From NCBI GenBank assembly GCA_030835125.1, contig JAUQWM010000012.1, forward strand, positions 62,001 through 126,000: DNA of 64,000 bases, read 5' to 3'. A program made the translations under genes and the position numbers. This document shows positions 7,315 to 53,921 of the stretch, in pieces. The notes under the pieces are model-generated. The model was not told the DNA's origin, did not search any database, and saw nothing but the letters and a program-made list of their open reading frames with translations. How positions within the stretch are numbered: position 1 is the stretch's first letter; every line of letters starts with the position of its first letter. This DNA is from Gemmatimonadaceae bacterium. GTDB lineage: Bacteria > Gemmatimonadota > Gemmatimonadetes > Gemmatimonadales > Gemmatimonadaceae.

Positions 7315-7353
7315 CGGCGAGGCTCGAGGCTCGAGGCTTGAGGCTCGAGGCTA
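7315..7353. repeat. Heptamer repeat GGCTCGA between convergent genes
   Basis: Five tandem GGCTCGA/GGCTTGA units fill the gap between the RND stop and the converging gene's stop. It is the same unit as at 2867-2900, so the two copies bracket the adaptor and pump genes. No T-tract follows, so this is not an obvious intrinsic terminator. Confidence 0.75.
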
Positions 7354-21539: not shown

Positions 21540-22370
21540 CGGTGCCATTCCCGGGGCACAGCATCTACCACAGGGGACACGGAGGTCACGGAGGACCGGC
21601 ACCGACGGCTCGCTCCTCAGTACCCTGGATTCCATGATGGCAAGCGCTGTCGCGGCTTCCTGCAAGAACTGTGTCTCCTTGGTGAATGCTCTTGTCAGGC
21701 TTGGCCGGCTCGCAGTGCCATTCACCAAGGCACAGCAGTTCACCACAGGGGACACGGAGGCCACGGAGAACGGCACCGACAGCTCGCTCAGGACCGTGAA
21801 TGCTTTCCGTAATGGCAGTCGTGGTCGCACCTTCCTCCGAGAGGAATCGCGATCGGGACGCGGGGCGGCTCGGCACAGTCTCCGTGATCTCTGTGTCCCC
21901 CGTGGTGAATGCTCTTGTGACTTGGCGGGCTCGCGGTGCCATTCTCGAGAGACAGCATTTCACCACAGGGGACACGGAGGTCACGGAGGAACGGCACCGA
22001 CGGCTCGCTCTTCAGGATTCTGAATGCTTTGCATGATGGCAGTCGTGGGTCGCAGCTTCTGCGAGAGGAATCGAGATCGAGACCCGGGTCGGCTCGGCGC
22101 AGTCTCTGTGATCTCTGTGTCCCCTGTGGTGAATGCTCTTGTCAGGCTTGGCCGGCTCGCAGTGCCATCCACAAGGCACAGCATTTCACCACAGGGGACA
22201 CGGAGGTCACGGAGGAACGGCACCGACTGCTCGCTCTTCAGGATCCTGAATGCTTTCCATGATGGCAGTCGTGGGTCGCTGTTTCTGCGAGAAGACTCGC
22301 GAGCGAGATCCGGGCCGGCTCGGCGCCAGTCCTCGGTGATCTCCGTGTCCCCTGTGGTGAATGCTCCATG
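21540..22370. repeat. Tandem array of four large hairpin repeats
   Basis: Four units begin at 21567, 21742, 21962 and 22188. Each starts with ACCACAGGGGACACGGAGG and about 110-140 bp later has the inverted arm (at 21663-21692 degenerate, 21881-21910, 22104-22134 and 22333-22363). A constant stretch containing GGCTTGGCCGGCTCGCAGTG separates units. No open frame is conserved between copies. This explains the whole gap between the PadR and multicopper oxidase genes. Confidence 0.9.
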
Positions 22371-39336: not shown

Positions 39337-40041
39337 TCAACTCGGGCGATCCCGGTCAGCGGCTTCGCCTATCGCCTCAATCAGGCGCTCGATCGTCGCT
39401 CGGGTCCTGCCAGCGATTCGTCGCATTGCGGACCACGCCAACCCTGCGGTAATCGCCGCGCCACTCGCGAGGACCAGGTACGGATTGATGAACCCACTGT
39501 CGCCAGCCGCGACCGCAGCGTTCAGGGTTGCCACCACGCCGACGCCGCCGATCATGAATGGCAGGACCAACGCGGCGCGCCGATTGACAGTGATTTCTAC
39601 GCGAGTCTCCGCACCCTCACCGTGGGCGGACACGAAGATTTCGGGGGCTCCGCTGGTAGACCACGAGACCCCAGCGGAGCTGGCATCGCCGACGCCATGG
39701 GTCTGCATCGTCCGCCGCACCGAATTGAGGATCTGTTGGGCGCGATCATTGGTGAGCTCACCCGGCAGGTCAAAGGCTCGCCGGACTCGAAAGGCGCCGC
39801 CCGTGACGCGGCGGAGAACGGAAGGCGGGTCTTCCACCGGGATGAGGCGAGCGGCGCGCGCGATCAAATCAGGATCCAGCCCCGCCTCAGCCGCGATCGC
39901 TTTGATCTCGTTGAGGGTGAGTCCGTCCTCGATGCGGCTTACCGCATTCGGCGAGCCGGCGAGCTCCGCTGCCCTCGACAGGATCAGCGAGAACTCTCTC
40001 TCCGTGTACCTCTTCGAGGCGTCACTCAAGGCGTCCGTCAC
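39337..40041 (-). CDS. Uncharacterised membrane protein
   Basis: 234 residues. A soluble N-terminal helix-turn region (YTEREFSLILSRAAELAGSPNAVSRIEDGLTLNEIKAIAAEAGLDPDLIARAARLI) looks like a SHOCT- or SMODS-like helical domain. A beta-rich middle follows (EIFVSAHGEGAETRVEITVNR), then two TM helices near the end (LVLPFMIGGVGVVATLNAAVAAG, PYLVLASGAAITAGLAW). The promoter region carries two 11-bp direct repeats. The function is not identifiable. Confidence 0.65.
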   Translation of the reverse strand: MTDALSDASKRYTEREFSLILSRAAELAGSPNAVSRIEDGLTLNEIKAIAAEAGLDPDLIARAARLIPVEDPPSVLRRVTGGAFRVRRAFDLPGELTNDRAQQILNSVRRTMQTHGVGDASSAGVSWSTSGAPEIFVSAHGEGAETRVEITVNRRAALVLPFMIGGVGVVATLNAAVAAGDSGFINPYLVLASGAAITAGLAWSAMRRIAGRTRATIERLIEAIGEAADRDRPS

Positions 40042-40125
40042 GACCTGCTCGAAGCTCCTGGGGACCGTCTTCGCCCCACCTGGTCTCCATCATCCCGTCG
40101 CGCATCTCCATCGACCGGGCCGAAT

Positions 40126-40158
40126 CTACATCATTTTTCTCGCACTACTACATCATTT
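40126..40158. promoter_or_regulatory. 11-bp direct repeats upstream of the membrane protein gene
   Basis: CTACATCATTT occurs twice with a 22-bp period (40126 and 40148), the only AT-rich stretch nearby, 85-117 bp upstream of the start at 40041. The same face of the helix would be presented twice, so it is probably a tandem operator. Confidence 0.5.
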
Positions 40159-40275
40159 GACGCATAGACGCCGCTGACCGAGCGGTCTTACCATCGTGCC
40201 GTCCTTCACGGGAGAGCACGCATGGCAGCGCGTCACCAGGTCTCGACACCCGATCGCCGGCCAACCGAAGCATGC

Positions 40276-41024
40276 CGGCGGAGGTCCGCAACGCGCGGAG
40301 GGGCCTCCCCTGCTCCGGTCCGCGCCTTTTCGCTCGACGTCGAGGGTGGACCCGAAGATTGTCCGCGGCAGGAGGCACACTGCCGCGGGACCGCCGGTGC
40401 GAGCGAGCGGACCGAGGCACCGAGTCGCCGGACGCGTGCGGCCAGCGACGTACGCAGTGCCGCACCGGCGCGGACACTGCGCCGCGGATCGCGGCACCTC
40501 GGCGCACGTCGAGCGGACCAGGACCACACCGGGCAGGTTCCGGTCGGTGCGATCGATGGCGACGGCGCCGATCTGTCGCCGTCCCACGGCGAGGCGTCGC
40601 GGGTCAGCGGCACATGGTGGCGGGACGCCGAGTGCGCGCGGCGGGACGATGGAGCGGTGCGCCGGGTTCAGTCACCAGGGTCGCGGCACCGTGGCACTGA
40701 CTCGGCGGACCGCTTCACCCTAAGGCGCGTCTGGCACCGCCGCCTGAGCGGACCGCGCGGGCAACTCACGGGCTCGAGCGCAACGAGCCGCGGGATCAGG
40801 GCGCCGGACTCCAGGAATCGCGGCCAGGATGCCGTCATATGGTGCGCCGATTGGCGCAGCACACCGAAGCAAGGTGCCGGACGATCGCCGAGAGTCGCCG
40901 GACTACGCGCGAAAGCGATCGGACCACAGCGCAATGCCGTCGTACCTGACCGGAGTTCCATTGGACGGCGCTGGGGTGGCGCCGGACCACGGTCGAGTGG
41001 CCGCGGCGCAGCCGTGAGAGGCCC
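40276..41024. repeat. Degenerate tandem array with a ~21-bp period
   Basis: The core CGGAC or a close variant (CGGGAC, CGTAC, TGGAC, CGGCAC) recurs at 40386, 40408, 40429, 40449, 40471, 40492, 40514, then 40600, 40621, 40642, 40663, 40684, 40706, and 40878, 40899, 40920, 40941, 40962, 40983, 41004. About 36 units can be placed. Most steps are 20-22 bp, with a few of 14-31 where units have slipped. Because steps are not always multiples of 3 and no frame is conserved, it is not a protein repeat. No gene is supported in 40042-41117. Confidence 0.8.
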
Positions 41025-41117
41025 CTGAGCCATTGCAGGTGAGCGGATCCGGCGCGAAGGACGCGCGTGCCGGCTTCATCAACCTGGCGCGTCCACCACC
41101 AGTTGCGGGAGGAACCT

Positions 41118-41915
41118 ATGAAGTACCGTCAAGGCCGAGTCCTGGAAGCGCTGCGCAGCGTGCAGGTGTTCCTGGAGCGGCACGGAGAGGTCCTGGACAC
41201 GATCTACAAGTCCGGGGCGCGGGCGAACCTGGATGCGGTCGCCGCCGAACTGCACGCGTGTGCCGTGCAGCAGGACGGGGGCAGGCGGAGGGCGGTCGGG
41301 GAGACGGCGAAGCAGCGCGCGCTGCGGGTCGCGTTGCGGTTCGCCATGCGACCGATCGCGGTAGCGGCGGGCGCGGGGCTGCGGGGGACGCCGCAGTTCG
41401 CCGCGCTCCGACTGCCGTCCTATCGGCTGAAGGGGATGGCGATGGTGGCCGCGGCACACGCCATGGCGGACGCGGCGACGCCGCACACGGCCGTCATGGT
41501 GGAGGCCGGGCTCCCGGCCGAGTTCATCGAGCAGCTCCGGCGGGCGGCGGACGCACTGAGCGGGTCGTATGACGAACGGCGGGCCAGCCAGACCGCGAGC
41601 ATGGGCGCCACGCGGGGGCTGATGGAGGCGGAGCGTCGGGGCCGGGCCATCCTGCGGATCCTGGATGCGCTGGTGGTTCCCGTGCTCGGACACGACGAGT
41701 CGCTGATTACGGCTTGGCGCAGCGCGCGGCGAATCCAGGCGAAGCCGGGGCCTGTGCAGGGGCAGGCCGATGCAGCGGTGGACGGCGCGCCCGGCAACGG
41801 GTCGCCGCCAACGGCCGGCGGAACGCCGGTCGCATTGCTGCCGGCGGCACCTGGCGCTGGTACGATGGCTTCGGGTGGGGATGACAAGCGGGACGGCCAG
41901 GAGCGGGCGGCATAG
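41118..41915 (+). CDS. Uncharacterised protein next to the 21-bp array
   Basis: 265 residues, with GGGAGGA 6 bp before the ATG. The protein is Ala-rich and helical: KYRQGRVLEALRSVQVFLERHGEVL, a basic segment (GGRRRAVGETAKQRALRVALRFAMRP), DALSGSYDERRASQTASMGATRGLMEAERRGRAILRILDALVVPVLGHDESLITAWRSARRI, and a disordered Gly/Pro/Ala tail. No signal peptide or TM helix. I recognise no domain. It is the only intact gene between the 21-bp array and the Dnd island. Confidence 0.7.
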   Translation: MKYRQGRVLEALRSVQVFLERHGEVLDTIYKSGARANLDAVAAELHACAVQQDGGRRRAVGETAKQRALRVALRFAMRPIAVAAGAGLRGTPQFAALRLPSYRLKGMAMVAAAHAMADAATPHTAVMVEAGLPAEFIEQLRRAADALSGSYDERRASQTASMGATRGLMEAERRGRAILRILDALVVPVLGHDESLITAWRSARRIQAKPGPVQGQADAAVDGAPGNGSPPTAGGTPVALLPAAPGAGTMASGGDDKRDGQERAA

Positions 41916-41947
41916 TCCTGGCACTTTCAACACCGGAGGAACGCACA

Positions 41948-41980
41948 ATGCCCAAGAACGAGAAGGGCGATGGCAGGTAG
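41948..41980 (+). other. 10-residue leader-like ORF
   Basis: An ATG with GGAGG 8 bp upstream reads MPKNEKGDGR and stops. The good ribosome binding site suggests the start of a former gene, cut off a few codons in, or a short leader. The DNA downstream to 42055 holds nothing recognisable. Confidence 0.35.
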
Positions 41981-42055
41981 CGTGACGGTCCTGTTCGCGT
42001 CGTGCTGTGTGAGGTCAGGATCCACAGCACGGCGCGAGTCGGGATTCGCCCGTGA

Positions 42056-42718
42056 TTCCAGGACACCCACATCGGTCAGGCGGCTTTCTACTTTGCGACG
42101 CAGCACTGGGAGCGCTCGATCGAGTGGGCGCAGCGGGGCATCGCGCTGGGCGACCGGCACGGGATCATTGCCTGGTCGGTGAACCGGCTGCTGGCGATCG
42201 TGGCCGAGGCGGCGTGGTACGACGAGGACTACGAGCTGACGGAGGCGGCGGGGCGGCGGCTCCGGGTGGAGGCGCCCCGGCTGGGCATGGACTCGGCGTC
42301 CTGTACGCGGAGGCGGCGGAAGTCTTTCTCGCGCATCTCCGCTCCCCCAAACCTGAGACCGTCCCTGCCCTGTTTAGGCATCGCCGCACGTACCGAGTCG
42401 GTATCCTATGTGTTCCACGCGGCGCGCCTCCGTCGCTTCGCGGCCAAGATCATGCTGGCGATGGGGGACAAAGGGGGCGCCGAGCGCGAGTACCGGTTGG
42501 CGCACGAGACGTTTCAGCGTCTGGGGGCGGAGTTCGAGCTGCGGCTCACGCGGGAGCAGATGCGGGAGCAGGGGTGGCGTCCGCCGCAGAAGTTGAACGG
42601 AGCGCGTGGGGTGTTGACGCCGCGGGAGTTGGAGATCGCGACATTTGCGGCGCGGGGGCGATCGAACAAGGATATCGGGGCCGTGCTGGACATATCCTGG
42701 CGGACGGTGAGCCGGTGA
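42056..42718 (+). pseudogene. Frameshifted, truncated LuxR-type regulator
   Basis: Reading across two frameshifts gives a tetratricopeptide-like helical part (HIGQAAFYFATQHWERSIEWAQRGIALGDRHG; VLYAEAAEVFLAHLRSP in the next frame). A LuxR DNA-binding domain follows (LTPRELEIATFAARGRSNKDIGAVLDISWRTVSR) and is cut by a stop inside the recognition helix. It has no start codon and lacks the N-terminal ATPase expected of such large regulators. It marks the left edge of the low-GC island. Confidence 0.75.
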
Positions 42719-42888: not shown

Positions 42889-44097
42889 CTAGCTTGCCGC
42901 CAAGGCTTCGTATTGGGGTCGGTCGGCCTCAGGTACTTCATCGATGTCTTCTAAGTCCAGAGTGAGCGCGAGCATGTGTTTGATCCGAACGCGGCCGTGG
43001 CCCGAAGCTTGAAAGAAGTTATCGGCAAAATCGACCGTGGACGCTTTAGCCAACAGTTTCTTAAAGCTCGCTTCTGTCAAGTCCTTCGCCGTGATTGTAT
43101 CGCGAGCGATCATAGCAAGGATGTCGAAGAGAGCCTGCACCCCAACCGTTCTGATGATATAGGACTTGGGCTTGGCCGGCTGCCAGAGCGTCGTATTGGC
43201 GGCGCCTAGAAAGTTCCTAACCAGAGTGTATATCGCCTTGTCGTTTGTCGCTCGGTACAGATCGCGCGCCGGCGTCTTGTCGTCGGGAAGTCTAGTGCGG
43301 CTGCGCTCCTCGCGAGGCACCATAAACATTGTGTTACGGTCGCTCTTTGGATCTCTTGAAAACAGCCGCAACAAACCGTCGACAACCGTGGCTGTAGAGA
43401 CGCGCCACAGACTCCCGTTCAATGTCAAGAGCTCAGAGTCCTGAGGCGCGACTGTGATGCGACCGCGGAGTGGCGAGTCGTCATCAACGTTGAGTCGTCG
43501 TGTCAAGAAGACTGCAGTCTTCTCTGGCGTCCAGGCATCCGCAGACTCTTCCTCAACGTCAAAGCCAAACAGCTCGTAGGCGAGACTTCGATCAACCTTC
43601 TTCTGATTGAAGTTGACAGTCGCGAAAACGTAGGCCTGAAAGGGATTCGGTAGGTCGAGAAACACGGAGCACACGAGCGGCATCTGCTCTCTATCGCTAA
43701 CGGTCGCTTTATCGAAACCCCAAAGGCGATGCTGTCCGTCAACCACACTCGCAAGGCGCTGACGGGATGGGATAACGAGTTCGTGACCTTCGATCATCCA
43801 CCGTGCGCTTTCTTCCTCCAACTCACCATCAGCACGATAGTTGGCCGCGATGACAATTGAGGTCGGGAAGACCGCCTCGACCGTATCAATGAACTTGCCT
43901 ATCTCCTTCAGTCGTTCAAGGCGTTGCGCGCGCTGTGTTCCACTGATCCTGTAGCTCTCCGCATTGACGTCAGACACTCTTGCTGCATCGGCATACGCCA
44001 CCTCACGCAGCAAATCGGCCGGCAGTACCGCTACATAGAATGTGCCAAACGGTTGAGTGACCGGGAGCGCAGCGGTGCGATGGGGAAACTCTGACAT
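42889..44097 (-). CDS. dndB: DndB-like DGQHR-domain protein
   Basis: 402 residues from the ATG at 44097 (MSEFPHRTAALPVTQPFGTFYVAVLPA). The DGQHR motif is at residues 120-124 in RQRLASVVDGQHRLWGF. The second family motif appears as ATVNFNQKKVDRSLAYELFG, where other members have N-x-T-Q-x-K/R. DndB is the ParB-superfamily regulator of phosphorothioate modification, known to repress dnd genes in some species. It lies at the far end of the island, 7 bp after a small membrane-protein gene, away from dndCDE, which is an unusual position. Confidence 0.88.
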   Translation of the reverse strand: MSEFPHRTAALPVTQPFGTFYVAVLPADLLREVAYADAARVSDVNAESYRISGTQRAQRLERLKEIGKFIDTVEAVFPTSIVIAANYRADGELEEESARWMIEGHELVIPSRQRLASVVDGQHRLWGFDKATVSDREQMPLVCSVFLDLPNPFQAYVFATVNFNQKKVDRSLAYELFGFDVEEESADAWTPEKTAVFLTRRLNVDDDSPLRGRITVAPQDSELLTLNGSLWRVSTATVVDGLLRLFSRDPKSDRNTMFMVPREERSRTRLPDDKTPARDLYRATNDKAIYTLVRNFLGAANTTLWQPAKPKSYIIRTVGVQALFDILAMIARDTITAKDLTEASFKKLLAKASTVDFADNFFQASGHGRVRIKHMLALTLDLEDIDEVPEADRPQYEALAAS

Positions 44098-44104
44098 GTT
44101 TGCT

Positions 44105-44581
44105 CTACGTTTGAAAGCCGGTGGTGTCGCCGGACAAAGACTGAGTATCCCCACCTGTGGCCGCTGCTGGGTTCGGGCTCCCAATGTTCGCGTTGGTACT
44201 GGCCGATAGAATCCAAAGTAGCCACGCGAAGGCAGCTGCTGGCCATAAGAGATGACCTGGTTCCAGTCCGCCGGGAGAACTAGTCCTCGTCGTCGTGGCC
44301 ATAATTGACATCGAGATCGATGCGCTACCGAGAGATATTGCAAGCATCCGCATCGAACGCGACGAACTGTCTGGAAGCACAAGCTCCACGGCGGCGGCGG
44401 CGGCGATCCCCATCGCGTAGCTGGCGAGGCTAGCGTTGAACTGTGCCGTCTCGGATAGCCACGCGCCGAGACCACCGATTCCGATGACAACAACGACGAA
44501 ATACATCAGTCGTGGGGGGTCGACAATGGCCTGCAGTCTGCGCTTAACGTCTCTCGAGAGTCCCAGCCATTCTTCACGCAT
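44105..44581 (-). CDS. Four-TM membrane protein upstream of dndB
   Basis: 158 residues. About four hydrophobic helices: LMYFVVVVIGIGGLGAWL, SLASYAMGIAAAAAVELVL, MRMLAISLGSASISMSIMA and LLWPAAAFAWLLWILSA. A basic cytoplasmic start (LSRDVKRRLQAIVDPPR) and a polar tail (SPNPAAATGGDTQSLSGDTTGFQT) flank them. I recognise no family. It is followed 7 bp later by dndB on the same strand, so they are probably co-transcribed. It may be an anchor or effector, but nothing in it proves this. Confidence 0.6.
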   Translation of the reverse strand: MREEWLGLSRDVKRRLQAIVDPPRLMYFVVVVIGIGGLGAWLSETAQFNASLASYAMGIAAAAAVELVLPDSSSRSMRMLAISLGSASISMSIMATTTRTSSPGGLEPGHLLWPAAAFAWLLWILSASTNANIGSPNPAAATGGDTQSLSGDTTGFQT

Positions 44582-44803
44582 CAGTGCACCTCCCAGGTGT
44601 CAATTTAGTCGACAAGCATCGCCTCCCTTGGGAGCGACGGAGTTGCTTGAGGCGGGCTCTCGTGTGTCTGCGCTAGGAATACAGAATGCATTGTCGGATA
44701 CCGACACAGACAGTATGGCCGATGGTGGCAACCATAATCATCGCGCTGCGTCCGGCGCGGCACGCGCGTCGGATCCGCCGCCCGCCCCTCTTGCTCGTAG
44801 TAC

Positions 44804-44823
44804 GTCGACCGGGGAGCTTACCA
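44804..44823. repeat. Direct repeat, right copy, downstream of dndA
   Basis: GTCGACC-GGGGAGCTTACCA, the partner of 42790-42814. It lies 49 bp past the dndA stop, as the other lies 75 bp past the dndB stop. The 290-bp gap 44582-44871 otherwise contains no gene I would call; it probably holds the promoter of the membrane-protein-dndB unit. Confidence 0.6.
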
Positions 44824-44871
44824 GCGAACGTCTTGTGAGCACCTTCAAACAGCCATCGACGGAGAATCTGC

Positions 44872-46062
44872 TCAGAGCGTCTCGGACGATCGCCGGAGGT
44901 CACGAAGCCTGCTCACGGCTTGGCTTACCGCTCTTGCCGCGAAATCAATCTCTGGCTCGGTATTAAATCTGCCAATCCCAAAACGAATCGCGCCATAGGC
45001 GCTCTCTTCGTCCACCCCGCATGCCCTAAGAACATAGGACGGCTCAAGGGAAGCGGAGGTGCAGGCCGATCCCGAGCTGACAGCAATATCCTTCATCGAC
45101 ATCATCAACGCCTCAGCCTCGATCTGACTAAAGGTAACGTTGAGGTTGCCCGGTAGCCGATGAGCAAGAGAGCCATTCACCCGAATCGCATCGATCGATT
45201 CGAAGAGCCTCTGCTTGAGCCGGTCTCGGAGCTGGCCCACGCGTTCCGACTCCGCAGGCATTTCCCGTCTAGAGACCTCACAGGCCTTTCCGAATCCGAC
45301 GATCAACGGAACCGGAAGGGTTCCTGACCTCAACCCTCGCTCATGGCCCCCACCGAACATCAACGGCGCAATTCGAGCTCTCGGTCGATTCCGCACGTAG
45401 AGTGCACCAACTCCCTTCGGCCCGTACATCTTGTGTGCTGACAGAGACACCAAGTCCGCATTAGCCAGCGCCACGTTGAAGGGGATCTTGCCCGCCCCTT
45501 GCACAGCGTCGACGTGAAAGAGAACGCCCTTCTCTCGGGCGATGCGACCGATCTCGACTACAGGTTGGAGGACACCGATCTCGTTGTTGGCCAGCATGAT
45601 CGAGATCAGAATCGTATCGGGCGCTATACTTTCCCGCACAGCCTCCGGATGTATCCGTCCGTCTGTGTCAACCGGTACGTACGTAACCCGATACCCCTGC
45701 CCCTCCAGATACTTGCAAGTGTCGAGGACAGCCTTGTGTTCAATCTGGCTGGTAACGATGTGTCGTCCCCTCGCCGCGTGGAACTCAGCGGCGCCTCGAA
45801 TCGCCAGGTTATCAGCCTCCGTTGCACCCGACGTCCACACGATCTCCTCGGCAGCCGCCCCGATCAAGTCTCCAACTCGCTGCCTCGCCTCACCCACCGC
45901 GCCTTCAGCCGCGAACCCAAATGAGTGGGTTCTTGACGCAGCGTTCCCAAATACACTCGTGAGGAATGGCATCATCTCCTCTAACACACGAGCGTCTATT
46001 TGAGTCGTCGCGTTGTTATCGAGGTACACCGGAAGCGTCACCGAACCGTTTTCGCTCTCCAT
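44872..46062 (-). CDS. dndA: Cysteine desulfurase (DndA/IscS-like)
   Basis: 396 residues, normal for the family. [38 protein letters not shown] opens the protein, [20 protein letters not shown] and [17 protein letters not shown] follow, and the PLP lysine is in [18 protein letters not shown]. The persulfide-forming Cys is in the mobile loop [19 protein letters not shown], a loop of IscS type. It supplies sulfur from L-cysteine to DndC. It is 9 bp after the MBL gene, in the same operon. It could also be a housekeeping-type IscS recruited to the island. Confidence 0.93.
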
Positions 46063-46071
46063 AACTTCTGC

Positions 46072-47103
46072 TTAGCAACCCCACTCGCGGCTAAAATGGT
46101 TGTTGGACGGCTGAGAACGGATTCCCAATCGTTCCTCGATGGCCTGCGAAAGTTCCACACCATGGGTTCTCGTGTTATCTGTCACGACGAACTTGGCTCC
46201 GGTCGCTGTGATGTAGTCAAGCGTCCCTTGGAAATCAGCATGATTTGAAAGGGCGACCTTATAGGCCCGGTCAGAATACTCTAAGACGGGGTCCCGATGA
46301 GGAACCATGTACGCACTCAGTGAGATCGTGGTGCCACCAGTTGAACCATCGGGAGGCCGATCACCCTTCGAATAGAGCCTGATATAGCGCTTTGTTCTCA
46401 GCGCATCCACTCCTTCGCTGGAGCGGCTCATAAGAACCGTCCCAACTGCCGCGCCATGGCCCTGGTAAACGGCAATCTCTTGACAAAGCCTTTCGCTCGC
46501 GATCACCGGAGCATTGACGTTCGTGCTCAGGAGTTGGAGAGCACGTTGAATTGTGCCTCGATGTGCATGCACGTGCACCGCGCCCGTTCGCAATTTCGCG
46601 TGAACGAGTTCTACTAGCCTCGCTTCCGCGTCCTCTTGCGAATACTGCCTGATACTTCCGGGGCTTCCATATGTGCTATCGACCACCAACTCGTCGCACT
46701 TGATAACATCCTCAGGATCAAGAGGCCATGCAAAGTCGCCCGAGTAGCCGAGCCGCTTCCCGTCCGCGCGCTCTACGAGCACCTGGACTGACCCAAGCAT
46801 GTGTCCGTTGGGCACAAGCGTTAGCTGGCTTGTCCCGACTTGAAACACTTCCCGGGGTTGAAGCGCGTGAATATTCTGCCTGACGGAGAGGTCGGCGTTG
46901 AACTCTGCGATAAGCAACTCGTGAGTCTGTGGGCTCATGACCAAGTCCTGCATTCCCTTGCTTGTCGTAAATCCAAACATGTGGTCGTCGTGCACATGCG
47001 TTTGAACACGAAGCGGGCGGTCTCGGTGAAACCCGTCACACACGACATCTGGCCCGAGCAACACGCCCCCGGTAGCCAGTACATCAACAAGTCTCTCAGC
47101 CAT
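46072..47103 (-). CDS. Metallo-beta-lactamase-fold nuclease (beta-CASP/exonuclease-like)
   Basis: 343 residues. The MBL metal site is intact: H36-V-H38-D-D40-H41 in VQTHVHDDHMFGF, then LVPNGHMLGSVQVLVE, LGYSGDFAWPL and VDSTYGSPG. The last region ends with VALSNHADFQGTLDYITATGAKFVVTDNTRTHGVEL, like the terminal His motif of SNM1/beta-CASP nucleases (COG1236-type). A metal-dependent DNA or RNA nuclease is likely. Its start overlaps the ParB-like gene's stop by 8 bp. An MBL nuclease is not a standard Dnd partner, so it may be the effector that replaces DndFGH. Confidence 0.8.
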   Translation of the reverse strand: MAERLVDVLATGGVLLGPDVVCDGFHRDRPLRVQTHVHDDHMFGFTTSKGMQDLVMSPQTHELLIAEFNADLSVRQNIHALQPREVFQVGTSQLTLVPNGHMLGSVQVLVERADGKRLGYSGDFAWPLDPEDVIKCDELVVDSTYGSPGSIRQYSQEDAEARLVELVHAKLRTGAVHVHAHRGTIQRALQLLSTNVNAPVIASERLCQEIAVYQGHGAAVGTVLMSRSSEGVDALRTKRYIRLYSKGDRPPDGSTGGTTISLSAYMVPHRDPVLEYSDRAYKVALSNHADFQGTLDYITATGAKFVVTDNTRTHGVELSQAIEERLGIRSQPSNNHFSREWGC

Positions 47104-47803
47104 CCGCGAGGCCCGTCTTCAGGTTCGCGTTAATCAGGAACTCGAGCTCATCCTTGTTGGCCCGAATCCTCTGGCCTAACTCCTCACCGCCCACTATGGT
47201 GAATCGCGACACTCCAAGTCGACCCGACGCCTTCACCGGTTTCAGAAGCGCTTTCGCGGACTCCGCCAAGAGCAAGTCCCGGTCCTTTTGGCTTAGCGCT
47301 GACAACCTTGCCTTGACAGCCTCGTCACGAACGGTTCCGATCAGTACGTGGCGGACGACCACCTGTGGTCGCATCCGGATGACAGACTGAACGCACTCGG
47401 CCATTGGCTTGCGGGACCGCTTTCGCGCCTGAACTAGCTGCCGGACCTCAGATGTCGAAAGGCCGTACTCCAACGCGGCATGAGCAGCACCTCGTTGGTC
47501 CGCCGCATCGTCAAGGCGTGAGATTTCGAAAGCCGAGCTGAATGCAATTCCCTCGTTGGCGCGACCCCACGACACAGTATGCTGAATGTCCTCTGGCAGC
47601 TTTGAGAGCGCCAAGAACCGGCTCACTTGGGTGGTCTCTACCTGTGCCGCGGAGGCGCACTCTTGAACGGAGCTGCCGGTCCGCAGAGCCTTTTCAAACA
47701 GCCCTGATACCTCCATTGGCGACAGCGCTCGTGTTCCCCGGTGAGTCCCCACAGAAACGATGAGCTGCCTTTGCTCTTCGGGACTTAGACCACTCATCGA
47801 CAT
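47096..47803 (-). CDS. ParB-related HTH protein without nuclease/CTPase domain
   Basis: 235 residues. The N-terminal half is a ParB/KorB-like helix-turn-helix: RALSPMEVSGLFEKALRTGSSVQECASAAQVETTQVSRFLALSKLPEDIQHTVSWGRANEGIAFSSAFEISRLDDAADQRGAAHAALEYGLSTSEVRQLVQ. The rest is a helical C-terminal domain without a motif I recognise. The ParB N-terminal fold is lacking, but an intact ParB gene precedes it with TAATG coupling. It may be the DNA-specificity partner of that protein. Confidence 0.75.
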   Translation of the reverse strand: MSMSGLSPEEQRQLIVSVGTHRGTRALSPMEVSGLFEKALRTGSSVQECASAAQVETTQVSRFLALSKLPEDIQHTVSWGRANEGIAFSSAFEISRLDDAADQRGAAHAALEYGLSTSEVRQLVQARKRSRKPMAECVQSVIRMRPQVVVRHVLIGTVRDEAVKARLSALSQKDRDLLLAESAKALLKPVKASGRLGVSRFTIVGGEELGQRIRANKDELEFLINANLKTGLADG

Positions 47804-48624
47804 TAGCTTCCGAAGCCTTTACCCAAGAGGCCCTCTTCGATGAGAGACGCCGCAGCGTCATCTTGGCTGGTTCCTTCATTGTCCGCGAACGTCTGAAGGT
47901 GTCGATGAGTCTCCCCGGTCAAAGTCACTACGATTTGAGTGACCTTGGATCCCGTACGCGCAGCCTCGATTGATTCATCCACAGATGCTTCTGGTTTCTC
48001 TTCTCGTTCCTGGACAAGCTTCTTCTGCTGGATTCCAGGCATGGACGCCATTTCTTTCGCGAGCTTAACGGCGTCCGCGGGGTCCGGCTTCTCCCCGCCG
48101 GCAGCGGCAGCATCTTGGGCACGGAGTGCCACTCTGATGTCCACCTCGCCACTATCGACCATGCCCTTAAGGGGCTTGATTAGCCGATCGTACTTGACGT
48201 ACTGACTGACGGTTTGCGCTTTCAATCCCGTCGCTTCTGCAACGGCCTTGATCGAACCGTACTTCTTGTACAGAGCGGTGCACGCATCGATGTACTCTTT
48301 TTGACTCACGTCGCGCCTCACAAGGTTCTCGGTAACCGAAATTGCTTTGGCGGTCTCTGCGTCCACCGGTTTGTTGAGAACCAGCGCTCGGATCGTTTTG
48401 GCCTTGTTCTTCTTGTGAGCCAGAAACCGGCGCTGGCCGGTAAGAATTTCGAATTTTCCCTTCTTCTCGCCCTCACACACCACGATAGGCTGAAGTAGCC
48501 CCTGTACGCGGATGCTCTCCGCAAGCTCATCGATGTCCTTATGAACATCTTTCACGCGAACTTGGCCCTTGCCGATTACCAAGTCATCGAGCGGAATGTC
48601 GCGGATATCGTTTGTGGTGATCAT
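47803..48624 (-). CDS. ParB/Srx-fold partition-like protein
   Basis: 273 residues. The ParB N-terminal domain is clear: IPLDDLVIGKGQVRVKD, VQGLLQPIVVC, the GQRR motif at 63-66 (TGQRRFLAHK) and the ENLVR motif near 99-103. Together these are the ParB CTP-binding positions. An HTH follows (YGSIKAVAEATGLKAQTVSQYVKYDRL), then a Lys/Glu-rich linker and an RHH-like C terminus (KVTQIVVTLTGETHRHLQTFADNEGTSQDDAAASLIEEG). No ParA is nearby. In this operon it probably slides on or marks DNA rather than partitions plasmids. Confidence 0.85.
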   Translation of the reverse strand: MITTNDIRDIPLDDLVIGKGQVRVKDVHKDIDELAESIRVQGLLQPIVVCEGEKKGKFEILTGQRRFLAHKKNKAKTIRALVLNKPVDAETAKAISVTENLVRRDVSQKEYIDACTALYKKYGSIKAVAEATGLKAQTVSQYVKYDRLIKPLKGMVDSGEVDIRVALRAQDAAAAGGEKPDPADAVKLAKEMASMPGIQQKKLVQEREEKPEASVDESIEAARTGSKVTQIVVTLTGETHRHLQTFADNEGTSQDDAAASLIEEGLLGKGFGS

Positions 48625-50069
48625 GAAACGTCCTCCGTGGACGGTTGGGAGATGCGCGGTGAAGGGTGGAGTTCAAGAATCCTCAATAGTTCCCGTTTGG
48701 TGAGCCGTTCTACATCAGGACCAGGTGCGTTCTCAATGTATTCATCGAACAACTCCTGCTTCAGTCGCAGAATCTTATCGATGCGCTCCTCGACCGAATC
48801 CTTCACCAGCAAGCGCACTGCGTGAAGGGGCCGTTTACGGGCAAACCTGTGGGCCCTTGAAATCGCCTGCGCTTCAGCGGCAGGGTTCCACCACCGATCA
48901 AAGAGGACTACTACACTTGCCGCCTCTAGATTCAGCCCTAAGCCTCCGGCGCGGAGAGACATAAGCAGGACTCTCGGCCCTTCGGCATTCTCAAATCGCG
49001 CTATCACCTCATCGCGCTCCGCTAGTGACAAGCCGCCGTGGTACAACTCGCAGTCGATAGCATCAAGCTGCTGCCCTAGCCAGGTGAGTGTCTCGACGAA
49101 CTGAGAGAAGATGATGATCTTGTCGAGCGGACCACGTGCGGATTCCACAATAGTTCGAACGAGTTCTAGCTTGGACGACGAGTTTGTCTTCGGGTCATAG
49201 TTACATGCCTGCTTCAGCTTTGTGAGTAGTGCGAAGAGGCTGGTAACCGGAATAGCATCTTCCTCATCGGACGGCAAGCCTTCCTGCCTAGCGTACCAGA
49301 GCCTGTCGTACGCGAGCCGCTGCTCATCCGTGAGTTCCAGGACAAGATCCTGGACTTGAATCGGAGGAAGCTCGCCCATGACGATGCTCTTCCTTCGGCG
49401 GAGCATGTGCGGTGCAAGACGCGAGAACAGTTCATCCTTCGTTACGGCATTCGTCAGCAACCCGGGTCTCACGAAATCGAAAACCGAGTGCAGTTCTGCC
49501 CGTGAATTCTCTAGGGGCGTCGCAGACAGTGCCCATGAAATTCTCCGGGAGAGGAGCTTGCAGGCGAAAGCCACCTGAGAGTCCGCGTTCTTGATCCGTT
49601 GGGCCTCGTCCAGGAGCACCAAGTCAAAGGTGTCGGCTGGGATATTGTCCAGCGCGTCTAGCCTCATTTGGTCGTAGGTGCCAACGACCACCTCAACAGG
49701 CAGTAGGTACAGCGAATTGCGCTCGTCGGCAGACCCCATCAAGCGCCGAACCACTAGATGGGGGGCCCATCTCGCCAATTCTCGTTCCCAGTTCAATGCC
49801 AAGGAAGCTGGGGCGACGATCAACGCCCGGCCCACATCCGGTTTCCGAAGACAGAGCGACAGGGCAATGATCGCCTGGACTGTCTTGCCAAGGCCCATCT
49901 CGTCCGCCAGCAACGCCGAGGAGTTGCGGTAAAGGAAGCTGACACCTTCCCACTGGTATTGGCGCAGCGGGGCGTGCAGAAAGCCCTTTGCTGCTTCCAG
50001 CTCCTCCTCGACAGAGGCCACGAGCCGCGACCTAAACCAGTGTTGGTGGGCGATGCACGAACTCTGCAA
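48621..50069 (-). CDS. Compact SNF2-family helicase
   Basis: 482 residues from a TTG at 50069, or 466 from the GTG at 50021, which lies after the dndE stop and avoids a 38-bp overlap; neither has a strong ribosome binding site. SNF2 motifs are complete: I in SALLADEMGLGKTVQAI (residues 56-63), DLVLLDEAQRIKN (II), ALSATPLEN (III), IIIFSQFVETL (IV), LLMSLRAGGLGLNLEAASVVVLFDRWWNP (V) and QAISRAHRFARKR (VI). It is minimal, with no extra domains. It is a double-stranded DNA translocase coupled by ATGA to ParB. Confidence 0.92.
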   Translation of the reverse strand: MQSSCIAHQHWFRSRLVASVEEELEAAKGFLHAPLRQYQWEGVSFLYRNSSALLADEMGLGKTVQAIIALSLCLRKPDVGRALIVAPASLALNWERELARWAPHLVVRRLMGSADERNSLYLLPVEVVVGTYDQMRLDALDNIPADTFDLVLLDEAQRIKNADSQVAFACKLLSRRISWALSATPLENSRAELHSVFDFVRPGLLTNAVTKDELFSRLAPHMLRRRKSIVMGELPPIQVQDLVLELTDEQRLAYDRLWYARQEGLPSDEEDAIPVTSLFALLTKLKQACNYDPKTNSSSKLELVRTIVESARGPLDKIIIFSQFVETLTWLGQQLDAIDCELYHGGLSLAERDEVIARFENAEGPRVLLMSLRAGGLGLNLEAASVVVLFDRWWNPAAEAQAISRAHRFARKRPLHAVRLLVKDSVEERIDKILRLKQELFDEYIENAPGPDVERLTKRELLRILELHPSPRISQPSTEDVS

Positions 50070-50421
50070 GATCGCTTAGGTGTTTCATACGGCTTGCCAA
50101 GAGAATGACGCCCCTATGGAGATGAGCCCTGAAAGGCCCTTCTAGCTCCGCATCCGGGTCAATCCCGTCATTTGCCAAGCGCTGGCGAAGAAGTGCAACG
50201 AACACGGTATCGTACTCTCCAAGCAAGGTGTACCGGTTGATATCACGGTCCGATTCATCGTCATACCTGTCCTCACTCGGTATCCCGGGCTCACTGAGAG
50301 AGAGGCAGAATCCTATTCGACAAAGCAGATTGGGCGTGATACCAGTCCGAGCCTTGAGAACCCGAAGCCAGTTATCAGCTTCCTTCGAGAATCGCACACG
50401 TCTGATTTCAAGCTCCGACAT
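50032..50421 (-). CDS. dndE: DndE-family protein
   Basis: 129 residues from the ATG at 50421, 14 bp inside the dndD 3' end. The conserved DndE core is LEIRRVRFSKEADNWLRVLKARTGITPNLLCRIGFCLSLSEPG; the remainder is helical. DndE is a small tetrameric protein that binds nicked DNA and is essential for phosphorothioation. Its size matches. Confidence 0.85.
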   Translation of the reverse strand: MSELEIRRVRFSKEADNWLRVLKARTGITPNLLCRIGFCLSLSEPGIPSEDRYDDESDRDINRYTLLGEYDTVFVALLRQRLANDGIDPDAELEGPFRAHLHRGVILLASRMKHLSDLAEFVHRPPTLV

Positions 50422-52453
50422 CCGCAACCTCCTCTTGATGCCAGAAGTAGCCTGGTGTTGCCTCCGTCCATCCATCAGAATGGTTCACCAGATGGAGCGA
50501 GTGTGACATGTTCGGCCGGAGCGTCTCGACGTAGGCTGCGTTGATCTCCGTATCGGTTGAGAGGATAATCACCTGATGCGAAGCAGCTGGGAAATACCTT
50601 TCAAGCAGATGCTTTCGGTGCACTGTGTCGAGTCGGCCTAGTGGCGTGTCGATGATCATCGGCAGCGCACGCCCGGACACTCTGGCTAGCCCCCAAAGCA
50701 GTGCTACGGCATAAATCTGCTTTTCGCCTGCCGATAGCAGCGCCTTGGGAAGTCGTTGATGTTCCCGATCAAATAGCGTGACTTCAAACGTCAGCGGGTT
50801 GATACTCAGGCGCTGAACGAGGTCGGACTTGCGACTCAGTGTTTGGAAGCAGTCGAGGGCGACCTTCTCAAGCTCGTCGACTTTGGCCACCGTTAGGCGC
50901 TTCAAGTACTCATCAAGTGCCTTCCGTGCCGACGCTGCCAGAGCGAGTCGTCTGGCCACCGAATGCGATTCGCTTTGCGTCTTGAGAATCCTCGCTCGCT
51001 CATTCGCGAGAATCGTGACCTGCTTTTCGAGGCGCGACCGATCCTCCGACTTCAGGGTGAGCTCCAGGGACAGTTTCGCCTGCTCCTCTTGAAGCAGTGA
51101 CAACTGCTTGACGAAGGGAGCAACCTCGTCTGCTTCTGGCGCCCGGTTCAAATGCTCCTGCACTTCTCGGAGCTCGGCAATCGTTGCCTCTAGTTCCTTC
51201 GTTAGCTCCGCTATTCGTGTCGGCGTTTCGCCCAAGGCCGATTCGAGCGTCTGGATCGCTTCGTGGCGGACGCGTTCTGAAAACTCGTGCACCGGTCGAA
51301 TAGCGGCCAGCGCGGAAGGCACTGTGCCTAGCTCTGTGGCGAGCGCTGCGATTTCAGAGGCCAGAGCGTTCCTAAGCTTCGGGGCAAGGCCGAGCCGGGC
51401 CGCGACTTCGCCGTTAATGACGCGACTTGAAACGGCGTCGAGCGCCCGTTGCGCTTCGACCCTTCCCGCGCGCCACGACTCCAGCGCGGCTTCCTGCCGT
51501 AGTTGCTCAACGAGCTTCTGGCTCAGCGCTCCGCAAATCGCAAATGGAAGGATCTTCTCACATTCATCCCTGAGAGCTCGTTCGACCTGTTCACGTCGCT
51601 CTTCCAGTTGCACTTTGCGGTTCCGCAGTTTACCGCGCTGCGCAGACAAACCCTCGCCGCGCTGCGCCAGCTGACGCTCAGTCTGCGCGATTGCATCGGC
51701 TAATTCCGCAAGGCGCGACGTTGCCGACTGCTCTGCAGTCTGAACGGACCTCACTTCGGTCTGAAGCTTCTCGTCGGTGGATTCAAGTTCTTGAAGGCGG
51801 TTGGCCAGCGCACCAGTAACAGTCTTCTTTAGATAGCGTGAGTTGTAGAGATCAAGGTCGGCCTGGAGGCGCTCGACAATATCCAGACCCAAGAGTGACT
51901 TTACGGATTCGCCGAGCGTCACAGCCTCGGTTTCCTCTTCGGCAAGCCTCATAATGCGTTCGCCATCGAAGAAGAACAGCTGCGAAACTCCGGGAGGAAT
52001 TAACGACCGGATAAACTCCGACCAGAATTGCGATTCGACGTCCGCCAAGGGCTGGCCATCGCGGAGAACACGAAGGCTTTCAATTACACTCGCGGTTCCC
52101 TTCGATTCCCAGGCACGATGGACGAGATAGGTTGACCGAACGCCTCCGTGCGCGTACTCGAACTCAAGGGCGACCGAGGCGTAAGAAATCGGTATCAGTG
52201 CAGCCTTGTTCCGATGAATCTTGTCGTGGAGAAACGACTGATACTCCGCTTCCGATGTCCTGAGACCGAGCGCTAACCGACCGTAAAGGCACACACGAAT
52301 CGCTTCAAGGATCGTCGTCTTGCCTGCACCGTTCTGGCCACCAATCAGAACTATCGGCCTCAGTCCGCCGCTTTTCGGTCGTGGCTTTAGCGAGAGCGTC
52401 TGTTCCCCCCGATATAGTCCGAAGTTCCGCAGCGTGAGTTGATTAATTCGCAT
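50408..52453 (-). CDS. dndD: DndD, SMC/Rad50-like ATPase
   Basis: 681 residues from the ATG at 52453 (MRINQLTLRNFGLYRGEQTL), which overlaps the dndC end by 11 bp. Walker A GGQNGAGKT is at 38-46. A long coiled coil, roughly residues 190-560, is predicted by heptad-like runs. The ABC signature LLSAGEKQIYAVALLWGLARVSG and Walker B ALPMIIDTPLGRLDTVHRKHL close the head. The hydrolysis is thought to drive DNA nicking or strand handling for sulfur insertion. Confidence 0.92.
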   Translation of the reverse strand: MRINQLTLRNFGLYRGEQTLSLKPRPKSGGLRPIVLIGGQNGAGKTTILEAIRVCLYGRLALGLRTSEAEYQSFLHDKIHRNKAALIPISYASVALEFEYAHGGVRSTYLVHRAWESKGTASVIESLRVLRDGQPLADVESQFWSEFIRSLIPPGVSQLFFFDGERIMRLAEEETEAVTLGESVKSLLGLDIVERLQADLDLYNSRYLKKTVTGALANRLQELESTDEKLQTEVRSVQTAEQSATSRLAELADAIAQTERQLAQRGEGLSAQRGKLRNRKVQLEERREQVERALRDECEKILPFAICGALSQKLVEQLRQEAALESWRAGRVEAQRALDAVSSRVINGEVAARLGLAPKLRNALASEIAALATELGTVPSALAAIRPVHEFSERVRHEAIQTLESALGETPTRIAELTKELEATIAELREVQEHLNRAPEADEVAPFVKQLSLLQEEQAKLSLELTLKSEDRSRLEKQVTILANERARILKTQSESHSVARRLALAASARKALDEYLKRLTVAKVDELEKVALDCFQTLSRKSDLVQRLSINPLTFEVTLFDREHQRLPKALLSAGEKQIYAVALLWGLARVSGRALPMIIDTPLGRLDTVHRKHLLERYFPAASHQVIILSTDTEINAAYVETLRPNMSHSLHLVNHSDGWTEATPGYFWHQEEVADVGA

Positions 52454-53921
52454 CAATCTCCTCGTCGATCTCGTCCGCGTCGGTCTCCGCACGCCATCCT
52501 ATTTCCTCAAACACTTCCGCTGCCGAACGCCAGTCCTTACTCAGGATTCGATCGATTCGCTCATGAACCGAGGCGCGCCTTCCCAAGCCCTGAAGGTCCC
52601 TCTCGAGATCGATCAGCTCTCGAAGAAGTGGAGCCTTCACCTCTAGTTCTGCGCAGACCTCTTCGAGGACCCTTCGATCCAAGGCACGACTGCCCGTGGT
52701 GTCTTCGCCAACCCAGTCAAGGTCCCCGCCGACCACATCTCGATACACTTCCGGCAGCGCATCTTCCCAGTCCCCTTCTTCGGTCCTCCACATGCGACGA
52801 ATCTCGTGGAGTTCGTCGACCGAAATGAGCGCAGCCTCCGGGTCCGGCCCGTTCTGTCGGACCCTCATTTGAGCCGACAAAAGCCTGCGCAGGATTTCAC
52901 GCCGAAAGGACAGCTTGTACGGGCCCCACACGATCTTGTTTTGGTCAGGCCCCCAGATTCGCACGCGACCGTCTCGCCGGCGTACCTCCCGGAATTCGTG
53001 CTTCCGGCTCGGTTCAGCGGTGGATGCCAGCCAATCTCTGAGTTCAAGGAGCGGTTCAAGCCACTCCTGGCCGCTGTCGATCATGGCTTCCATCGACTTG
53101 TCGCGCTGAACGACTGTGCAGGTCCAGCAACCAAAACGACTACCCCCGCACGACGGTGTCGTCGTATCCACTACTAACGGGCATTCACCGGCTTGGGCGT
53201 TGCGATAGAGGGTGACCAAGTCGCGGTTGTTTGCGCCCCAGGGCGACGGAATCGAAAGGAGGTAGGACCAGACGTCATCCGTGCTGAAGTGCTCGATGGG
53301 GCTATAGACCCATGCGCTCCGAAGGACGGTATGCCGCGAGAGGATCTCTCCCGGTGTCCGGTGCAGGCTCATTACTTGGGCGCGAGTGGCGCTCTCGGAC
53401 CGCCGAACACCGAGGACGAGGATGACCTCGCCATGCCGATTGACCTGCTCTTCGATGAATCGGTTCGCCGGTTGAATTTTTAGACGATCCGTGCACCAAC
53501 GAAATCGACGGTAGGGTGCGGGGTACCCCTTACCGATCATGTTCACCCAAAACGTGTCTTGTAGTCGGGGGCGCACTTTTTCCGCTTTGAACGGCATCCC
53601 GGTCCTGGAGGCGACTTCGTTGATTCGGTCAAGAGTCTTGTCGATGTAGCTCACGATCACCGGTGTCTCCACCAGCGTATCGGACGCGATCACATAGACA
53701 GTCTTCTGTCTGCTCTCAGGAGGCAGCTTCGAAAGAGCACTCCAGATCAGCTGCAACGCTGTTGTAGAATCCTTGCCGCCGCTGTATCCGATCACCCACG
53801 GACGGTCGTCAGCTGTGTAAACCGTTCGAATCTCGTTTTCGAGCTCCGGAAGCGGCCTTTGCTCTCCCGGCTTGCTCGCTATTCCGACGCTGGGAGAAGA
53901 ACGCGGTTCAAGGTCGGGCAC
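52443..53921 (-). CDS. dndC: DndC, PAPS-reductase-like sulfurtransferase
   Basis: 492 residues, the usual DndC length. The PP-loop WVIGYSGGKDSTTALQLIW (residues 42-60) binds ATP. The downstream block YRRFRWCTDRLKIQPANRFI and the Cys cluster SCGGSRFGCWTCTVVQRDKSMEAMI give the four Cys for a [4Fe-4S] cluster. It adenylates and accepts sulfur for transfer to the DNA backbone. It is the first gene of the operon; its start overlaps a possible short upstream ORF by 14 bp. Confidence 0.95.
   Translation of the reverse strand: MPDLEPRSSPSVGIASKPGEQRPLPELENEIRTVYTADDRPWVIGYSGGKDSTTALQLIWSALSKLPPESRQKTVYVIASDTLVETPVIVSYIDKTLDRINEVASRTGMPFKAEKVRPRLQDTFWVNMIGKGYPAPYRRFRWCTDRLKIQPANRFIEEQVNRHGEVILVLGVRRSESATRAQVMSLHRTPGEILSRHTVLRSAWVYSPIEHFSTDDVWSYLLSIPSPWGANNRDLVTLYRNAQAGECPLVVDTTTPSCGGSRFGCWTCTVVQRDKSMEAMIDSGQEWLEPLLELRDWLASTAEPSRKHEFREVRRRDGRVRIWGPDQNKIVWGPYKLSFRREILRRLLSAQMRVRQNGPDPEAALISVDELHEIRRMWRTEEGDWEDALPEVYRDVVGGDLDWVGEDTTGSRALDRRVLEEVCAELEVKAPLLRELIDLERDLQGLGRRASVHERIDRILSKDWRSAAEVFEEIGWRAETDADEIDEEIDAN

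What the first reader, a model, noticed from the sequence alone, without database searches (positions are those of the whole stretch)
40276..41024. About 36 degenerate repeats spaced two helical turns apart
A CGGAC-type core recurs every 20-22 bp for about 750 bp. Uninterrupted runs include seven cores from 40878 to 41004 with exact 21-bp steps, and six cores from 40600 to 40706 at 21, 21, 21, 21 and 22. 21 bp equals two turns of B-DNA, so all cores would face the same side. The rest of each unit is poorly conserved, unlike a young VNTR, suggesting selection on the core and spacing. Not a coding repeat, since steps vary by one base. A binding array for a polymerising or nucleoid protein is the simplest idea; the orphan gene at 41118 may encode it or its partner.
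Basis: partly seen in the sequence, partly recalled or inferred. Interest (0 to 1): 0.68.

Follow-up and report, generated by a model that had tools for sequence, protein, structure and literature searches.

The report
Conserved 21-base repeat array with partner gene
Upstream of an unstudied gene in a Gemmatimonadota-type bacterium lies a long non-coding run of imperfect repeats whose 21-base spacing, but not whose sequence, is kept beside relatives of that gene in many species, and in one family it ends in a conserved RNA knot, so it looks like an undescribed RNA-plus-protein system.

Summary
Window 40222-41030 fits 37 degenerate units, mostly 21 bp apart (score 225; 100 shuffles mean 59, max 97; neighbouring periods 36-85). 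The array is non-coding.

The 'orphan' gene at 41118 belongs to a patchy, multi-copy family (36 of 298 genomes searched in the phylum). Upstream of 50 of 61 family members the strongest period from 8 to 40 is exactly 21. About 90% of steps are exactly 21, although over a third of unit positions differ from their column majority. Unit sequences differ between loci and between blocks of one locus: the period outlives the sequence.

Two features point to RNA. Between array and gene most loci of one family carry an H-type pseudoknot (window 41049-41094) whose arms covary. The other end has a conserved promoter-like block, next to ECF sigma genes in some relatives. The protein is basic, confidently all-helical and without known relatives.

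Best explanation: a transcribed repeat RNA serving as a multivalent platform for the helical protein, laid out like a type III toxin-antitoxin locus but not a member. Transcription and binding are inferred. No Rfam, Pfam, PADLOC, TIGR-Tas or CRISPR family fits.

The parts
40148..40220 (+). Conserved promoter-like block directly 5' of the array
   Evidence: 84% identical over 74 bp to the block upstream of the paralogous array in the same genome, whose array does not align. Promoter function is inferred.
40222..41030 (+). Non-coding array of about 37 degenerate units, mostly 21 bp apart
   Evidence: no codon-position GC signature (0.74/0.71/0.73); strand taken from the pseudoknot and gene
41049..41094 (+). 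H-type pseudoknot: stem 1 41049-41055 with 41067-41073, stem 2 41059-41066 with 41087-41094
   Evidence: also found by the sequence-only model R1 at 41049-41097, E=1.4e-6 (the window is one of the model's own sequences)
41107..41113 (+). Likely ribosome-binding site GGGAGGA
   Evidence: read from the sequence; similar AGGAGG-type sites in relatives
41118..41915 (+). Partner gene: 265-aa basic all-helical protein of unknown family
   Evidence: homologues; structure model; pI 10.3; codon-position GC 0.77/0.56/0.86

Best explanation
Most likely this is a two-part ribonucleoprotein module. The array is transcribed in the sense of the gene from its own promoter into a non-coding repeat RNA of n x 21 nt, closed at its 3' end by a pseudoknot just before the ribosome-binding site of the helical protein. 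The RNA serves as a multivalent platform that loads about one protein (or dimer) per 21-nt unit, and so titrates, stores or organises the protein, as type III antitoxin repeats hold their toxin or CsrB holds CsrA. The pseudoknot marks the end of the RNA and/or controls expression of the gene. Shown: the period, its conservation beside the gene, the non-coding nature, the covarying pseudoknot, the conserved 5' block, the basic helical protein model. Inferred: transcription, RNA-protein binding, one protein per unit, titration as purpose.
For: Exact 21-bp period upstream of 50 of 61 family members; 814 of about 896 steps exactly 21 although 7180 of 19677 unit positions differ from the column majority. 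Non-coding. Pseudoknot 3' of the array in most f1 loci: own arms pair 98.9% and 99.3%, swapped arms 57% and 60%, maxima 72% and 77%; stem 2 covariation above all 500 shuffles and all slid controls. Conserved block 5' of the array, in some loci beside ECF sigma genes. Sense strand C over G in 30 of 41 arrays. Protein basic in f1 and all-helical. Unit consensus found only in its own array, so the partner is likely local.
Against: No transcript or binding data. Unit sequences are locus-specific, share no motif, and L069, L077, L080 and L087 carry two unrelated unit families in one array, which is awkward for one sequence-reading protein. 21 bp is also two DNA turns. Some f2 proteins are near neutral. 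The pseudoknot is tested only in f1. Ten or so loci show no clear upstream array.
Confidence: 0.42

Rival explanations
1. DNA-level phased array: the protein, or a partner, binds the double-stranded array once every two helical turns and polymerises along one face, as an operator, partition or nucleoid site.
For: The unit equals two turns of B-DNA; 20 and 22 are tolerated; the protein is basic; whole-unit gaps between orthologs keep the helical phase.
Against: No enrichment at lags 10-11; no motif shared between loci; unit not found elsewhere in three genomes; phase drift in the window copy; the pseudoknot and 5' block mark the array as part of a transcription unit.
Confidence: 0.25
2. Array without its own molecular partner: a leader that grows and shrinks by whole-unit duplication (concerted evolution), its period fixed by the duplication mechanism and tolerated, or used only to tune expression of the gene through leader length.
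For: Whole-unit indels between orthologs; near-identical neighbouring units and higher-order repeats in some arrays; unit sequence drifts freely between loci; truncated gene duplicates occur.
Against: Neutral arrays should change period over such protein divergence (20-40% identity), yet the fitted strong arrays all have 21; two unrelated blocks in one locus share it; period 21 but no unrelated period is enriched upstream.
Confidence: 0.18
3. Guide-RNA array: units are processed into short guides used by the helical protein or a partner, as in TIGR-Tas or CRISPR systems.
For: Array plus single protein; locus-specific unit sequences at constant length; some arrays alternate two unit types (L078, L080, L092), as TIGR arrays alternate edge and loop repeats (PMC12045711).
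Against: In the arrays printed, variable positions are scattered or only about 7 contiguous, not unrelated spacers; no Nop domain, nuclease or Cas family found; no second site for three consensus units in their own genomes.
Confidence: 0.08

Closest known systems
Type III toxin-antitoxin loci (ToxIN, CptIN)
   Same: Promoter, tandem repeat RNA, structured RNA element, then one protein gene, as listed in PMC8860590; multi-copy, patchy.
   Different: Repeat 21 nt instead of about 36 nt; 10-44 units; no pseudoknot in each unit but one after the array; all-helical protein instead of the ToxN RNase fold.
TIGR-Tas systems
   Same: Short repeats of locus-specific sequence and fixed spacing beside one helical protein gene; two alternating units in a few arrays.
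   Different: No Nop domain found, no clear spacers, no edge/loop repeat plan in most arrays.
Sponge RNAs such as CsrB/RsmZ (own knowledge)
   Same: Many short imperfect protein-binding repeats on one non-coding RNA that titrates a small protein.
   Different: CsrB motifs are GGA in hairpins at irregular spacing; here the period is strict and no unit hairpin is found. Gene is adjacent and downstream.
Helical bimodular (HBM) sensor domain, McpS
   Same: Best global overlap of the f2-family model: TM about 0.56, Foldseek probability 0.99-1.0; one member hits Pfam HBM at E=0.016.
   Different: Foldseek E above 0.1; no signalling parts; basic protein with disordered tail. Probably a shared bundle shape only.

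Membership tests
Type III toxin-antitoxin | promoter, tandem repeats and hairpin element before the protein gene | tested here: met
   conserved 5' block, array and pseudoknot/hairpin upstream of the gene; criteria from PMC8860590. Promoter activity itself not tested.
Type III toxin-antitoxin | each repeat folds into a pseudoknot that binds the toxin | tested here: not met
   no systematic covariation within units; the only pseudoknot follows the array
Type III toxin-antitoxin | toxin of the ToxN-like RNase fold | tested here: not met
   no Pfam match in 24 members; all-helical model
Type III toxin-antitoxin | protein toxic, neutralised by the RNA | not testable with these tools
   needs expression assays
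TIGR-Tas | Nop-domain protein | tested here: not met
   no Nop match in Pfam for 24 members; no PDB fold match with E<0.001
TIGR-Tas | two alternating 8-12 nt repeats separated by 9-nt spacers | tested here: not met
   units of one 21-mer kind in most arrays, scattered variable positions
CRISPR array | identical repeats with unrelated spacers, cas genes | tested here: not met
   units are degenerate throughout; no cas-type family seen among the neighbours scanned
Known Rfam RNA family | covariance-model hit above the gathering score | tested here: not met
   window 40000-42000 and 12 loci, none
Coding repeat (heptad protein) | one open frame through the array | tested here: not met
   15 of 41 arrays have stops in all six frames; frame-breaking steps in 20 of 41; no codon GC signature in the window
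VNTR/satellite | period free to change, units related by recent duplication | tested here: inconclusive
   whole-unit indels and block repeats exist, but the period is constant across loci

The most novel reading that the evidence does not exclude
A previously undescribed class of bacterial repeat RNA, tens of 21-nt units with freely changing sequence but fixed period and, in one family, closed by a pseudoknot, that works with its own family of helical proteins, in some genomes beside ECF sigma/FecR-type genes.
Probability: 0.5. Interest if true: 0.9.

Novelty: categorically new. Interest (0 to 1): 0.77.

Why it matters
A repeat whose period is conserved across a large evolutionary distance while its sequence is not is rare; it implies a constraint on geometry. 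If it is an RNA, it is a new type of bacterial ribonucleoprotein with a readily testable stoichiometry (protein per 21 nt). It has many natural variants, and its relatives' neighbours (ECF sigma, FecR-like, DUF2188, small membrane proteins, peptidoglycan hydrolases) suggest a signal-controlled function.

Tried and rejected
Coding repeat: rejected. Hairpin in each unit: no systematic covariation. Excess RNA folding of arrays: none overall (mean sense z -0.9). DNA bending at 10-11 bp: no signal. A motif shared by all arrays: joint alignment no better than with half the arrays reverse-complemented. Dispersed targets or operators of the unit: none in three genomes. An early impression that 81%-identical proteins L077/L079 use unrelated units was withdrawn: L077 has two blocks, and its 5' block resembles the L080 array. 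Several of the 5' blocks listed are probably coding genes with codon periodicity and were not counted. Phage, plasmid and viral homologues: none found. NCBIfam PQLLE_fam (NF052641): weak, nearly full-length co-linear hits in several members (best E 9e-4, far below the cut-off); the family was found in none of 200 genomes of the phylum nor in the control genomes, so unresolved. Fold matches: none with E<0.001 in PDB or BFVD. Degenerate-pattern scans with broad alignments failed; one with a subfamily found only two named records, both of one uncultured Gemmatimonadetes MAG.

Full report
OBSERVATION. The array is real. Autocorrelation of 40276-41024 peaks at 21, 42, 63 and 105 (z 6.7, 4.2, 3.7, 3.3). 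A unit profile with small free steps finds 37 units from 40222 to 41030 with score 225, against a shuffled maximum of 97 and 36-85 for neighbouring periods. It is one of the most degenerate copies of its kind, with some 22-23 bp steps, and by a plain statistic it would not stand out in the window; the decisive evidence is comparative.

THE GENE AND ITS FAMILY. The 265-aa product of 41118-41915 has no Pfam, PADLOC or clear NCBIfam match. Related genes occur in 17 of 99 near relatives and 36 of 298 genomes sampled over the phylum, scattered and often multi-copy (up to 10). The phylum is taken as Gemmatimonadota because the only two named records found for the family belong to an uncultured Gemmatimonadetes MAG; this is an inference. 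The same genome holds a truncated paralog at C68 with its own array. Truncated duplicates are common: in G020 several contigs pair up with identical first 141 bp, and in two of the three pairs one gene copy breaks off. AlphaFold2 gives a confident all-helical fold (pLDDT about 97 over most of residues 1-200, low-confidence tail), with the same layout in the distant f2 subfamily. No structure in PDB or BFVD matches with E<0.001. The domain is basic in f1 members and most proteins end in -AA, a possible protease signal (inference).

THE ARRAY TRAVELS WITH THE GENE. In 61 loci with enough upstream sequence, the best period from 8 to 40 is exactly 21 in 50. At a fixed threshold, 110 kb of upstream DNA gives 49 windows at period 21, and otherwise only 14 and 28, which share the 42- and 84-bp multiples; 278 kb of downstream DNA gives 5 at 21. 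Fitted arrays have 814 of about 896 steps at exactly 21, 32 at 20, 10 at 22, and most of the rest at 42 or 63. Pooled autocorrelation shows 21, 42 and 63 and nothing at 7, 10 or 11; 7180 of 19677 unit positions differ from their column majority. So spacing is held far better than sequence. Loci without a clear upstream array include L071, L073, L085, L095, L104, L115 and L123-L125; in L094 the array lies downstream.

SEQUENCE TURNOVER. Units are about 50% identical within an array (background 28%), nearly flat with distance in most arrays; some alternate two unit types. Close relatives can share the unit (L083/L088, L070/L086, L079/L080), and orthologs L083/L088 (proteins 77% identical) differ mostly by whole-unit gaps. 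Distant loci share no motif: joint alignment is no better than with half the arrays reversed. L069, L077, L080 and L087 carry two consecutive blocks of unrelated units, both with period 21. Three well-kept consensus units occur, apart from background-level partial matches, only in their own array in their own genome.

WHY RNA. First, between array and gene most f1 loci have an H-type pseudoknot with regular geometry: stem 1, a short loop, stem 2 of the GGACGC/GCGTCC type, then the ribosome-binding site. Own arms pair 98.9% and 99.3%, swapped arms about 57% and 60% with maxima 72% and 77% in 1000 swaps (the arms were chosen by pairing, so the contrast with swaps is the evidence). Stem 2 alone has a covariation score above all 500 shuffles and above all slid controls. 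Some f2 loci have other compact structures (L101, L105; similar hairpins in G075), not tested further. Second, a conserved block lies directly 5' of the array: 84% over 74 bp between the window and its paralog while the arrays do not align, and a GGAATC...TGTATnAGTA block in genus g23, in five loci doubled as an inverted repeat. Third, sense strands have C over G in 30 of 41 arrays. Fourth, arrays are non-coding. No Rfam family matches.

NEIGHBOURS. ECF sigma genes lie beside eight loci, FecR-like genes beside several (Pfam FecR in L084), DUF2188-type small proteins downstream in eight, small membrane proteins downstream in at least five, and peptidoglycan hydrolases (Muramidase, Amidase_2) in a few. 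In the window the downstream DNA is a Dnd-type phosphorothioation island, which may be chance.

MECHANISM. The layout promoter-repeats-pseudoknot-RBS-protein and the basic helical protein fit best a repeat RNA that carries many copies of its protein. Transcription, binding and purpose are inferred. The main difficulty is that unrelated units in one locus keep the same period, which suggests weak sequence reading or a duplication mechanism with a 21-base step. The DNA-phasing model remains open because 21 bp is two turns.

COMPARISON. It works like a type III toxin-antitoxin locus or a sponge RNA, but fails their defining features where tested (unit structure, protein fold). TIGR-Tas shares locus-specific short repeats but needs a Nop domain and a dual-repeat/spacer plan, which were not found (PMC12045711). 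No paper found in the library describes it; that library is incomplete.

Noticed in passing
window 42889-53921 (-): Dnd-type DNA phosphorothioation island (DndB/DpdB-like, DndA, two ParB-like genes, an SNF2 helicase, DndD, DndC) with lower third-position GC than its surroundings, so probably acquired.
   Followed up: partly
window 42179-42718 (+): LuxR-type regulator fragment: only about 35 of 57 positions of the GerE domain match, next to frame-broken sequence; probably a pseudogene.
   Followed up: no
window 21669-22366: Tandem repeat of a 226-bp unit, 3.1 copies, 87% matches, with inverted CCCCTGTGGTGAA-type segments in the unit.
   Followed up: no
window 2870-2900 and 7318-7352: Two short 7-bp tandem repeats (AGGGTCG, CGAGGCT) at gene ends.
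   Followed up: no
L077, L078, L079, L080, L084, upstream of the array: The promoter-like block is duplicated as inverted repeats (arms 13-25 bp), in several loci facing a divergent ECF sigma gene; may be a pair of divergent promoters.
   Followed up: partly
L127, L162, L091, L093: Peptidoglycan hydrolases, with small membrane proteins in some, downstream of the partner gene, resembling a lysis cassette.
   Followed up: partly
L167-L172 (genome G020): Pairs of contigs start with identical 141 bp inside or at the start of the gene; two copies then break off, showing recent duplication and truncation.
   Followed up: yes
L096, L097, L104: A short hairpin element (CCCCCTCTCC...GGAGAGGGGG in L104) recurs in several loci and twice within L097, like a REP-type repeat.
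   Followed up: no
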